Origin: Shewanella sp. HN-41
GTDB lineage: Bacteria > Pseudomonadota > Gammaproteobacteria > Enterobacterales > Shewanellaceae
NCBI RefSeq assembly: GCF_000217915.1
Contig: NZ_AFOZ01000037.1
Location: 124,001 to 188,000, forward strand
DNA length: 64,000 bases
Reading direction: 5' to 3'
Position numbers and translations under genes: made by a program. The stretch's first letter is position 1, and every line of letters begins with the position of its first letter. The notes beneath the pieces are model-generated. The model was given only the letters and a program-made list of their open reading frames with translations, made no database searches and was not told where the DNA came from. Below are positions 9,616 through 12,049 of this stretch, in pieces.

Positions 9616-9750
9616 TTAGCGTTTGCTGGTATCCACTAACACAGGCTTACCATGGCATTCGCTCGTCGTCTCGCTAATCACCATGGCTCACCGTTTTGGC
9701 TTTAGCGTAACCGTAGATTTAAAGGTCTTACGCAGCACGCTTTGGGACAT
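9616..9750 (-). pseudogene. Degenerate cassette-type small ORF with in-frame TGA
   Basis: Reading leftward from the ATG at 9750, the frame gives MSQSVLRKTFKSTVTLKPKR, a TGA (9688-9690), then continues in the same frame as AMVISETTSECHGKPVLVDTSKR to a TAA at 9616. The two halves total about 45 codons. The sequence lies immediately beyond an attC site on the cassette strand, so it may be a decayed third cassette. It could equally be non-coding; the two halves sharing a frame is the only coding hint. Confidence 0.35.
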
Positions 9751-9807
9751 GTCAGAGTTAGGGCGTCGGCACTATCAGGTGAATTTCGGATAAGAATTTC
9801 TATGGAT

Positions 9808-9928
9808 TAACGCCGCGTTAAGGGGTGAATAACTCGACCACCCAACCTAGCCCATTGTGCCGTAAACACTAAATTTGAATCAAATCAAGAATACCAAGCG
9901 TTGAGAATCCGTCTTAAACGCTTTGTTA
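9808..9928 (-). repeat. Integron attC recombination site (downstream of the 182-aa cassette)
   Basis: On the minus strand the site opens with TAACAAAGCGTTTAAG and closes with CTTAACGCGGCGTTA; the two ends are imperfect inverted complements about 121 bases apart, the architecture of attC. The interior carries further imperfect symmetry (TCAACGCTTGG, AATTTAGTGTTTACGGC) resembling Vibrio superintegron repeats. The TAA stop of the upstream ORF is part of the opening TAAC, as is usual in tightly packed cassettes. Confidence 0.85.
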
Positions 9929-10474
9929 GCTAGCAGAGTGACGACGAGCTGCTGCCTCATTCTCCATTACCACAAAATATGCATTGGGAGGCAATTGTTC
10001 ATAGTCCACGGCCTCTCCTCTATGGCCTTGCGCCCCGACTAATGTACCAAGCTCTCTACAGTTATATACGACCTGCCACACACAATTTAACTTGATAAAA
10101 CTAGCGCCAACACTGTCGATGTAAATAGCCCTTTTCTTTGGAAATTTCTCGTTATAGAACCACCATAGATATGGATACTGACCATTATCTAATGCATTTT
10201 CCAAAGCTTTCAGTTGAATATCTCGTAAAGTTTCACTTTGCTCATCTATGTTTAAGCCTTTAGCCCACCTTAGATTTACAGGGCATTCCCAACCGCAGTG
10301 AACATCTATATTTGATAGAATACGAAGTTCACCCACTGGCTGTGTGGGCGGAAATAATAAAATGCTAGCATTCTTACGAGATGATGCGAGGCGTAAGCGC
10401 ATACCCTTTAGCTCAGGAACATTGACCGTTGTATATTGTGACCACAGGTTTTCCAACCGTTCTATCATGCTCAA
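9926..10474 (-). CDS. Cassette-encoded hypothetical protein (182 aa)
   Basis: Soluble-looking protein of 182 residues with no signal peptide or membrane segment. I do not recognise the family. The centre is aromatic-rich (GQYPYLWWFYNEKFPKKRAIYIDS) and the C-terminal part contains PPNAYFVVMENEAAARRHSAS. Only 16 bases separate its start from the R' end of the upstream attC, and its stop codon is inside the downstream attC (9808-9928), so it fills one complete integron cassette. Cassette genes of this kind are usually horizontally acquired. Nothing in the sequence indicates a specific function. Confidence 0.8.
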   Translation of the reverse strand: MSMIERLENLWSQYTTVNVPELKGMRLRLASSRKNASILLFPPTQPVGELRILSNIDVHCGWECPVNLRWAKGLNIDEQSETLRDIQLKALENALDNGQYPYLWWFYNEKFPKKRAIYIDSVGASFIKLNCVWQVVYNCRELGTLVGAQGHRGEAVDYEQLPPNAYFVVMENEAAARRHSAS

Positions 10475-10492
10475 TTCTCTGTTGTACAGGCT

Positions 10493-10613
10493 AACGCCCG
10501 CCTAAGGGGCTGGCAACGCAGAACACTAAACTCAAACACAATAACCATAACCACCGCGGTTCAATGGGACTGGAAACGCCACGCGTTGACAGTCCCTCTT
10601 GAGGCGTTTGTTA
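10493..10613 (-). repeat. Integron attC site, near-consensus Vibrio cholerae repeat (VCR)
   Basis: On the minus strand the site runs from TAACAAACGCCTCAAGAGGG to CCCCTTAGGCGGGCGTTA; the ends are inverted complements. Between them are GACTGTCAACGCGTGGCG, CCAGTCCCATTGAACCGCGG and GTGTTTGAGTTTAGTGTT, which I recognise as the VCR consensus almost base for base. At about 121-124 bases, the length is also that of a VCR. The HAD gene's stop codon overlaps the opening TAAC. This is the strongest evidence that the locus is an integron-derived cassette array. Confidence 0.93.
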
Positions 10614-11432
10614 TATTTTTTTTCGCTTAAATAGTTGTAATAGGCCTTTTACTGTTACATCAAGTTGGCTACCCTCTTCGTAAACAGCTGGTACAACATA
10701 ATTTGCTCGCTCCTCAGCAATGAGCTTTTCTACTTTAATTTGAGTGCTAGAATCACTCCATTTCTTTTGGTCAAACACAGCCAATGAGAATCCACCTTGA
10801 TATCTAACCATTTTCATTGATGGAATGTCAGTATCACCATCACCAAAATATATCATTTTCTGAAATGGTATAGTTCGTTCACTTGGTTCGACAAATTTAT
10901 TAACAGCTGCATTATCCCAAGAGTTGTCGATCCCTTTATTTATTCGAAACAAAAACTGAGTCTTTGTAGTGTAATTAATTGCTTGCGCTGGCCAAATTGC
11001 TTTCTTACCATCTATAGAATAATGATATTTACAGGCGTATATTTTACGAAATTTTGAACCAATTACTGTACCCTGAATCATTGCATCTAAACCGCTTGAA
11101 ATAATGTAATGTTCAATATCTAACCCATGTAGTTTTCCATACTCATTAATTCTGTCAAACCAAGTATCGACACCAGGGAAGAGTGGGATGCATTTACCAT
11201 GCTTTATTAAGTTATCGTTACTCAATTCATCCGACTCTAATTGATTTGCTTTTTCGGCTAACAAGCCAAGATAAGCAAGAATCTCATCACCGTCATCATT
11301 TTGAGCTCTACTCTTCACTTCCTTCCAAAAAGCTGCAACATCATCGATGCCTAGCGACGTCATTAAACCATGTTGCGCACAATCTCCTTCAGCTAAAGTA
11401 CCATCAAAATCATAAATTAATGCACATTTCAT
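10611..11432 (-). CDS. Cassette-encoded HAD-superfamily phosphatase
   Basis: Haloacid dehalogenase-type hydrolase of about 273 residues. Motif I is DFDGTLAEGD with the nucleophilic aspartate at residue 8; the motif II region is IISSGLD; motif IV is YFGDGDTDIPSM, binding Mg. The long insert between motifs I and II is a C1-type cap, as in phosphoserine phosphatase relatives. I start at 11432 because AGGG lies five bases before it; the frame extends to 11480 without a better site. It ends exactly in an attC, so it is an integron cassette gene. The substrate is unknown. Confidence 0.82.
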   Translation of the reverse strand: MKCALIYDFDGTLAEGDCAQHGLMTSLGIDDVAAFWKEVKSRAQNDDGDEILAYLGLLAEKANQLESDELSNDNLIKHGKCIPLFPGVDTWFDRINEYGKLHGLDIEHYIISSGLDAMIQGTVIGSKFRKIYACKYHYSIDGKKAIWPAQAINYTTKTQFLFRINKGIDNSWDNAAVNKFVEPSERTIPFQKMIYFGDGDTDIPSMKMVRYQGGFSLAVFDQKKWSDSSTQIKVEKLIAEERANYVVPAVYEEGSQLDVTVKGLLQLFKRKKI

Positions 11433-11800
11433 ATGTTCCCTCATACTTTCTAAAAAATATAACATTTTATTCGTGCGCATGCGCGTTTACCTAGTTAGAC
11501 CAGTGAAAACGCGCACGGTTAACTACCTGTATGCAAAGAACTTATCAGCTTTCAGCCGAATACACCATCTGGAAAAACGCGCATGCGCGTTTTCCAAACC
11601 TATTAACTAAAATTCAGTTACTATATTCACCTGATTTTATGGGGTTTTATTTATTGTGTATGGAATTAGTGCGCACTGATATTGTCTGAAAATCATACCA
11701 AAACACCTAAATTTAAATATTACTGTATACTCATACATTGTTAGTCGATTTCTGGTAAGGCCAAACTTAGGCAAATAGATAAGAATATCTATGGCAGCAG
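11433..11800. other. Leader region of the cassette array with GC palindromes
   Basis: AT-rich spacer between the HAD cassette and a short repeat. Two copies of the palindrome GCGCATGCGC occur, at 11475-11484 and inside a perfect 16-base palindrome AACGCGCATGCGCGTT at 11576-11591, with a related AACGCGCAC between them near 11509. No integrase gene or clear attI is visible. It may hold the promoter driving the cassettes. Confidence 0.45.
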
Positions 11801-11894
11801 TTGTGGGAATTTTCGGTTGAGCTAACGAGCCGAAACACGGAAAGGGGCAATATTTTTTTAGCTAAACGAACAGCAGAAGTGTTAGTTAAGATTG

Positions 11895-11985
11895 GCATTG
11901 TTGCAACTGTGACCGTTGGCGGCATGGATGCCGCCGTCGAGCCTATAGGGATATATTTACGGCGAGTCACTGGGGAAACAATGGC
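11895..11985. repeat. Short intergenic repeat-like element with strong hairpin
   Basis: GGCGGCATGGATGCCGCC at 11918-11935 is a perfect 8-base-pair hairpin with a two-base loop, followed by TCGAGCCTATAGGGATATAT and TTACGGCG. This layout reminds me of a dispersed Shewanella intergenic repeat. A 71-codon frame spans it (11801-12016, GTG start), but there is no ribosome binding site and I do not treat it as a gene. Confidence 0.4.
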
Positions 11986-12049
11986 AATAAATGCAGCACA
12001 ACTGACGATTCAATAATCTTGCTTTGGGGCAAAACCGCCCTAAAAATAA

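What the first reader, a model, noticed from the sequence alone, without database searches (positions are those of the whole stretch)
9808..11432. Orphan integron cassette array with VCR-type attC sites inside a polyamine region
Two minus-strand ORFs each end, to the base, in an attC site, and the one at 10493-10613 is nearly the Vibrio cholerae VCR consensus. No integrase gene is in the window, so this is a cluster of attC sites lacking an integron-integrase. A pair of cassettes of Vibrio superintegron type between rlpA-like and puuC in a Shewanella-like chromosome points to transfer and insertion at a secondary site.
Basis: partly seen in the sequence, partly recalled or inferred. Interest (0 to 1): 0.8.

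Follow-up and report, generated by a model that had tools for sequence, protein, structure and literature searches.

The report
Scattered integron docking sites in Shewanella
Two gene cassettes that looked like strays sit in one of a dozen copies of an integron docking site scattered over a Shewanella genome; related species often hold different cassettes, some resembling anti-phage defence genes, at the same places.

Summary
The first is a VCR, 91-95% identical to nine Vibrio VCRs; the second is an attC but not a VCR.

The interpretation changes. This is not insertion at a secondary site. Cassette A starts, to the base, behind a 150-bp sequence 91% identical to the one beside the integron integrase gene on another contig: an attI copy. 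The genome has 12 copies; 42 of 129 Shewanella genomes have at least one, up to 15. A shared right arm was found at 43 of 64 copies, 38 with the expected GTT junction. At 14 chromosomal sites shared between species, sequence agrees up to the crossover; first cassettes differ at 11 of them, once through an IS element. Identical cassettes occur at different sites.

Best reading: a distributed integron, many attI docking sites served by an integrase in trans. Here the integrase gene is frameshifted, 23 of the 42 genomes have no intI over cut-off, and how the sites spread is unknown.

The parts
11463..11612 (-). attI core, 150 bp, ending in AATAAAATG; crossover between 11463 (G) and 11462 (T)
   Evidence: 90.7% identical over 150 nt to the core beside intI on contig C32 (alignment); 86-90% at six intI loci of other Shewanella; pattern copy at C11:135460-135491; identity among 64 copies drops from 82% to 58% beyond position -150
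11613..11765 (-). left arm: possible vestige of an integrase-promoter region with a LexA-like TATACAGT box; no intI follows
   Evidence: shared with many dispersed copies; TACAGT in 54 of 64 left arms; no intI similarity in the upstream sequence held (2.5 kb for most) in 60 of 64 copies
10495..11462 (-). gene cassette A, 968 bp, from crossover to crossover
   Evidence: start and attC box complementary over 13 of 13 nt; boundaries from sequence
10611..11432 (-). cassette A ORF, 273 aa, HAD-like protein; PADLOC candidate defence family PDC-S34
   Evidence: PADLOC PDC-S34 E 3e-100; best NCBIfam match MtnX-like HAD-IB E 3e-9, below its cut-off; 7568 relatives at E 1e-3 or better among the 8000 candidates scored
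10490..10613 (-). attC of cassette A, VCR type
   Evidence: R1 116.5 bits, E 1e-29; 91-95% identical to nine Vibrio VCRs; fold z -2.7 for the + strand, the attC bottom strand
9811..10494 (-). gene cassette B, 684 bp
   Evidence: boundaries from sequence
9926..10468 (-). cassette B ORF, 180 aa from the ATG, orphan family
   Evidence: no Pfam, NCBIfam or PADLOC match at E 1; five relatives besides itself, 67-86% identical
9806..9928 (-). attC of cassette B (not a VCR)
   Evidence: R1 88 bits, E 7.5e-22; fold z -1.75 for the + strand
9744..9810 (-). right arm of the docking unit, TTAATCCATAGAAATTCTTATCCGAAA...ATGTCCC, starting directly after the last attC; a hairpin repeat follows to about 9640
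   Evidence: 3 of 27 mismatches to the right-arm consensus; found with 8 or fewer mismatches in 43 of 64 copies against 1 of 64 shuffles

Best explanation
The locus is one docking site of a distributed integron. A unit made of a left arm, a 150-bp attI core and a right arm, mostly without an integrase gene, lies at about a dozen places in the genome, many of them shared with related species. An IntI of the type encoded beside the same attI elsewhere in the genus acts in trans and inserts or removes cassettes at the G^TT point of each unit, so every site carries its own short array. SHOWN from sequence: the attI copies, precise cassette boundaries, attC sites, sites shared between species with different cassettes, and the same cassette at different sites. 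INFERRED: that IntI did this in trans, that expression is driven from each attI, and that the process still runs. In this strain the only integron integrase gene found is frameshifted in the assembly, so the sites may now be frozen or served by an incoming integrase.
For: Attached to intI: the window core is 90.7% identical to the one beside intI on contig C32; of 30 fetched intI loci, 6 have it at 86-90% over about 150 bp and 6 more have weaker or partial matches. Dispersed: 12 copies here, up to 15 per genome, 42 of 129 genomes, reversed-pattern control 0. Precise: G^TT at 60 of 64 copies and 55 different kinds of sequence after it; right arm in 43 of 64 copies against 1 of 64 shuffles, 38 of the 43 with GTT at the junction. 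Turnover: 22 species pairs at 14 shared sites agree at 12-15 of the 15 nt before the crossover; in 19 pairs (11 sites) the 15 nt after it agree at only 3-9 (one pair, L117/L138, because an IS element sits there); where both right arms were found (13 pairs) they agree at 20-35 of 35; right flanks match in 11 of 12 pairs tested. Same cassette, different site: L124 equals the second cassette of L145 at 99.4%, preceded by attI in one and attC in the other; in ANA-3, L120/L121 share 526 bp at 100% and L121/L123 375 bp at 98.9%. All 46 attC hits (38 in 30 of 47 relatives' loci, 8 in 4 of 10 own loci) lie downstream of an attI copy on its strand. In 42 copies 123 ORFs run with the attI, 5 against.
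Against: No intact integron integrase was found in this genome. Of the 42 genomes with the motif 19 have an intI over the cut-off, against 58 of 87 without it (counted by hand), so presence of any intI does not follow the motif. No empty unit was found in 129 genomes at up to 3 mismatches of one pattern, though a working system should sometimes show one. Sites are not all fixed: of the counterpart intervals examined, L262, L265 and L280 show no attI, and 3 of 11 ANA-3 sites fetched had no counterpart among the copies fetched elsewhere. No consensus promoter was found. The copies were chosen by a 32-nt motif that includes GTT, so G^TT and the last 29 nt are partly selected. 21 of 64 copies show no recognised right arm, and 17 of 47 plus 6 of 10 loci gave no attC hit at E 0.05 with this model. 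The 22 pairs are not independent (14 sites). An unrelated attI type also has extra copies in one genome. Homologous recombination through the flanks could replace cassettes too. No experiment.
Confidence: 0.78

Rival explanations
1. Remains of many complete integrons: a mobile integron (intI + attI) landed at many loci and lost intI each time, leaving the attI and a few dead cassettes (degraded integrons, as CALINs are usually explained).
For: Left arms keep a LexA-like box aligned with the intI promoter of C32. A published survey finds intI at different loci in different strains (PMC9229058, discussion read). CALINs have been proposed to be degraded integrons (PMC9024848, passages). intI is frameshifted here, and 23 of 42 genomes with the motif lack an intI over cut-off.
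Against: 60 of 64 copies show no trace of intI in the upstream sequence held. Contents differ at sites shared between species, with breakpoints at the crossover, which dead remnants would not do without an integrase in trans.
Confidence: 0.3
2. The unit is a transposable element (MITE-like or like an integron mobilisation unit) that carries attI and its cassettes as cargo; variety reflects transposition of differently loaded units.
For: High copy number with left and right arms; perfect palindromes in the core; sporadic presence of the core in Pseudoalteromonas, Vibrio injensis and Xenorhabdus; three counterpart intervals without attI.
Against: 8 of 11 ANA-3 sites fetched have a counterpart at the same place in another species, so recent jumping is not the main source of variety; no clean empty target or target duplication was found in the intervals examined; I found no transposase tied to the arms, but made no dedicated search for one.
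Confidence: 0.25
3. One reading: Vibrio-type cassettes inserted at a non-attI secondary site (attG-like).
For: Site 1 is a VCR and no integrase is near.
Against: The first cassette abuts a full attI core and the last one a right arm shared with other copies.
Confidence: 0.04
4. A recombination hotspot: contents are swapped by homologous recombination between conserved flanks after DNA uptake, and attC/attI are passengers.
For: Flanks are conserved on both sides in 11 of 12 pairs tested.
Against: Identity stops and resumes at the integrase crossover points; single cassettes, not whole intervals, are shared between different sites.
Confidence: 0.08

Closest known systems
CALIN / SALIN (attC sites lacking an integron integrase)
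   Same: Two attC sites with cassettes and no intI nearby; Shewanella was reported to be rich in CALINs and SALINs (PMC9229058, section 3.4 read).
   Different: Here a full attI copy and a shared right arm frame the array, which the CALIN idea does not include; IntegronFinder 2.0 says attI outside class 1 is poorly described and not detected (PMC9024848, passages).
Chromosomal integron of the Shewanella type (SonIntIA-like; name recalled and seen in PMC9229058)
   Same: Same attI core beside intI in several genomes, same cassette and attC logic.
   Different: Not one array at one attI but many short arrays at many attI copies; no intI in cis at 60 of 64 copies.
attG secondary-site insertion of cassettes (recalled; not read here)
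   Same: Cassettes outside the integron proper.
   Different: The target is a whole attI unit, not a short host sequence.
Integron mobilisation unit (MITE-bounded integron, recalled; search listing only)
   Same: Integron parts spread as a repeated unit.
   Different: No terminal repeats or target duplications shown here; many sites are shared between species.

Membership tests
CALIN | two or more attC sites | tested here: met
   two hits, E 1e-29 and 7.5e-22
CALIN | no integron integrase nearby | tested here: met
   the only hit over the family cut-off in the genome is on contig C32
Complete integron | intI in cis | tested here: not met
Complete integron | attI site directly before the first cassette | tested here: met
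   150-bp core shared with intI loci; recombination not assayed
Complete integron | Pc promoter reading into the cassettes | tested here: inconclusive
   no sigma-70 consensus site found in the window unit; the first listed ORF starts within 75 nt of the crossover in 35 of 41 copies
attG-type secondary insertion | target without attI features | tested here: not met
MITE / integron mobilisation unit | terminal inverted repeats with target duplication | tested here: inconclusive
   no clean empty site among the intervals compared
VCR (Vibrio attC) | high identity to Vibrio repeats | tested here: met
   site 1 only, 91-95% to nine VCRs
PDC-S34 candidate defence protein (cassette A) | profile match over the whole protein | tested here: met
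   E 3e-100, residues 2-269
PDC-S34 candidate defence protein (cassette A) | protection against phage | not testable with these tools
   needs a phage assay

The most novel reading that the evidence does not exclude
Shewanella runs one integron over many chromosomal attI docking sites: an integrase in trans moves cassettes between them, so each cassette sits near its own attI instead of being silent far down one long array. The scattered sites would then hold a set of defence and stress genes that are expressed at the same time and that can be exchanged one by one.
Probability: 0.55. Interest if true: 0.9.

Novelty: new variant of a known kind. Interest (0 to 1): 0.82.

Why it matters
CALINs and single stray cassettes are common and are usually read as wreckage. 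Here a set of them in one genus turns out to have an attI of their own, often at sites shared between species, with cassette turnover at the crossover. That gives a testable origin for stray cassettes and a different integron architecture (many short arrays, not one long one). It also shows a blind spot, since the standard tool does not look for attI outside class 1. Cargo includes a complete Hachiman pair (HamA and HamB) and several candidate defence proteins, so it bears on how defence genes are stored and swapped.

Tried and rejected
Secondary-site insertion: rejected, because an attI is present. Plain duplication of one integron: rejected as sufficient, since copies number up to 15 and 60 of 64 lack intI relics. 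Empty unit: searched with a junction pattern, none in 129 genomes and none in the held loci (only partial matches); the pattern covers one subtype only. Clean empty sites with target duplication: counterpart intervals fetched for several sites. L260 and L288 hold a diverged attI with a right arm, L274 a close attI, L261 a right arm without core, and L262, L265 and L280 neither (L285 was not read), so the boundaries of the unit stay undefined. The simple box-complement test for cassettes discriminates poorly: single-cassette matches at 16 of 38 sites against about 12% in shuffles, and chains of up to four, the window's two-cassette chain included (4 of 20 shuffles), arise often by chance; I rely on the covariance model and the sequence instead. 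In one search one of five measures (further pair types, 331 of 500 shuffles) does not exceed the shuffles. Rfam gave no attC match, which I take to mean that it has no such family. Promoter scan negative. Control with an unrelated Shewanella attI: 5 of 129 genomes, one of them (G008) with three matches, the third only 75 nt, so low-level copying is not unique to this attI type. One search listed 28 flank pairs; I used 22 and dropped six: three where the shared flank is intI itself, one within one genome, and two with short or uncertain flanks. None of the six shared a first cassette. Literature: searches (spoiled by the word 'attitude') listed nothing about dispersed attI; the library is open-access only and supplements could not be read.

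Full report
What was checked. The window is part of contig C11 of a 4.41-Mb draft genome. It belongs to Shewanella: relatives labelled 'same genus' include G112, whose attI places and contig length equal those of NC_008577.1, Shewanella sp. ANA-3. Two minus-strand ORFs end in attC sites as described. I built a covariance model from 14 attC sites, nine from a Vibrio plasmid, one from an S. xiamenensis plasmid and four from other Shewanella. The arm pairing was written by hand from the alignment and recalled attC anatomy: 95.8% of cells pair and 9 pairs show changes on both sides, against 45% or fewer paired cells when partners are slid; one of five measures does not exceed shuffles. In 64 kb it finds the two sites at E 1e-29 and 7.5e-22, the next hit at 0.35. 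In 14 comparison loci it finds one site, which lies in the array beside intI.

Upstream of cassette A the sequence ...GGTAAACGCGCATGCGCACGAATAAAATG^TTATATT... is 90.7% identical over 150 nt to that between intI and the first cassette of the integron on contig C32. That intI reads in two overlapping frames, so it is frameshifted in this assembly. The core, searched by BLAST in 129 Shewanella genomes, hits 90 at E 1e-3, some only weakly. As a 32-nt pattern with up to 3 mismatches it hits 42 genomes, 12 times here and 15 times in ANA-3, with no hit for the reversed pattern. In 394 genomes of the order it occurs in 12, from 2 of 114 genera, own genus included. An exact scan also finds it in five stretches from Pseudoalteromonas and one each from Vibrio injensis, Xenorhabdus, Marinomonas and Maribrevibacterium, one or two copies per genome; in the last two only the last 27-33 nt match, not the whole core. 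Three viral contigs also carry it (not followed).

Anatomy of a docking site. I fetched 64 copies: 12 of 12 here, 11 of 15 in G112, 11 of 13 in G113, 9 of 10 in G084, 12 of 13 in G059, 7 of 7 in G075, and one each of 9 in G054 and 8 in G083. Sixty have G^TT at the crossover, with 55 different kinds of sequence after it; the motif partly selects for GTT. Mean pairwise identity is 82-95% over 150 bp and 58-62% beyond (the last 29 positions are part of the search motif). Cores beside intI are as close to dispersed cores (85-90% on average, three tested) as those are to each other (88%). After the cassettes a right arm, consensus TTAACCCATAGAAATTTTAATCCGAAA, is found with 8 or fewer mismatches in 43 of 64 copies against 1 of 64 shuffled sequences; in 38 of the 43 the junction reads GTT, as an attC end would leave it. 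In 42 of those copies, 123 ORFs of 70 aa or more run with the attI and 5 against. The model finds attC sites at E 0.05 in 30 of 47 relatives' loci (38 hits) and in 4 of 10 own loci (8 hits); all 46 lie downstream of an attI copy on its strand. Shorter attC types may escape this model. No copy in 129 genomes is empty by the pattern used.

Shared sites, changing cassettes. Comparing flanks showed the same chromosomal sites in different species; 8 of the 11 ANA-3 sites fetched have such a counterpart. One site is occupied in this species, ANA-3, G084 and G113, each with a different first cassette. I compared 22 pairs from 14 sites. The 15 nt before the crossover agree at 12-15 positions. In 19 pairs (11 sites) the next 15 nt agree at 3-9; in one of these, L117/L138, because an IS110-family element sits there in L138. 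In three pairs the first unit is the same (L118/L130, L153/L162, and L152/L164 with a small indel). For the 13 pairs where both right arms were found, the arm agrees at 20-35 of 35, while 35 positions shortly before it agree at 5-13 apart from one identical pair. Right flanks match in 11 of 12 pairs tested. Conversely, single cassettes recur at different sites. The only cassette of L124 (ANA-3) is 99.4% identical to the second cassette of L145 (G084), preceded by attI in one and by an attC in the other. In ANA-3, sites L120 and L121 share 526 bp at 100%, ending at the right arm, and L121 and L123 share 375 bp at 98.9%. This is the footprint of site-specific recombination rather than of exchange through the flanks. 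Not every site is shared: among counterpart intervals examined, L262, L265 and L280 have no attI.

The window's own site. Of 30 puuC loci fetched, six more distant relatives (G084, G112, G113, G054, G083, G002) have rlpA within 0.25-0.45 kb of puuC and none of this cargo; 14 others matched only at puuC and are uninformative. Six closer relatives have 1.6-6.7 kb of other DNA between rlpA and puuC. G012 and G061 have VCR-like stretches of 66-70 nt at 86%. G012, G061, G077 and G076 match the distal part of my right-arm query (from about position 60), which is also a common repeat, not its diagnostic start. G071 and G064 match neither. G087 has the attI core at 87% followed by different sequence, but its contig ends. 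Cassette A encodes an HAD-like protein matching PADLOC PDC-S34 with thousands of relatives. Cassette B is an orphan with five relatives besides itself, including Ferrimonas aestuarii at 86% and Vibrio vulnificus at 76%.

Cargo in general. I scanned 98 of 117 distinct cassette ORFs (those of L138, L155, L166 and L167 were left out). Matches include a complete Hachiman pair, HamA 271 aa and HamB 1043 aa, between attI and right arm of L135; a NERD+UvrD protein of type C3a187 in L144; PDC-S31 in L142; partial matches to ThsA in L117 and PDC-S57 in L129 (ten proteins, four without a match); also PD-T4-6, PDC-S71, TIR and SIR2 domains and five acetyltransferases. Only 25 of 104 PADLOC and of 31 Pfam families were listed, so I give no fraction of defence genes.

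Limits. An intI over the cut-off is present in 19 of 42 genomes with the motif (this frameshifted one counted) and in 58 of 87 without (by hand), since many intI types with other attI sites exist. So about half of the genomes with docking sites have no such integrase now, and present activity is not shown. Trans action, expression and spread are inferred. The origin of the dispersed units is open: left arms retain a box like that of the intI promoter (54 of 64), which points to an integron that lost intI before or during dispersal, but 60 of 64 copies have no intI relic and no clean empty target was found.

Known work. A 2022 survey of 304 Shewanella genomes reports many CALINs and SALINs and intI genes at varying loci. 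In what I read of it (abstract, passages found, section 3.4 and the whole discussion) CALINs are not linked to attI copies; the words MITE, dispersed and repeat do not occur in its main text (PMC9229058). [quoted passage not shown] My searches listed no paper on scattered attI sites. Reports on attG sites and on defence genes in integron cassettes are recalled, not read.

Noticed in passing
L152, L153, L154, L155, L161-L164 (G059 and G075), first about 330 bp after attI: A unit 95-100% identical between copies sits first behind eight docking sites in two species (also in L182). It starts G^TTCTTGACC or nearly so, I saw no long ORF in it, and it matches no Rfam family at E 1. It may be a promoter or RNA cassette.
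   Followed up: partly
L138, L166, L167 at the attI crossover: An IS110-family element (340-aa transposase, Pfam match checked in L138) lies at or within a few bases of the attI crossover in three genomes, so it may target attI.
   Followed up: partly
L009 9870-10830 (contig C32): The only integron integrase gene over the cut-off in this genome is split over two overlapping frames; a draft-assembly error cannot be excluded.
   Followed up: no
L260, L266 (same place as L233), L288: Diverged attI subtypes, two ending in ...ATAAATACTAAGACG^TT (L260, G087) and one degraded (L288), also precede cargo, so docking sites are undercounted by the motif.
   Followed up: partly
window 11844-12032; L229, L230, L231 and others: A repeat of roughly 190 bp...GGGGCAATAGCTTTTTAGC..., lies between puuC and the docking site, in two or three tandem copies in some relatives.
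   Followed up: no
G008:C1:1643502, 3523142, 3477073: An unrelated Shewanella attI type also matches in three places in one genome, one full, one 93% identical and one of 75 nt only.
   Followed up: no
L225, L226, L227: Three IMG/VR viral contigs carry the attI core at 83-93%.
   Followed up: no
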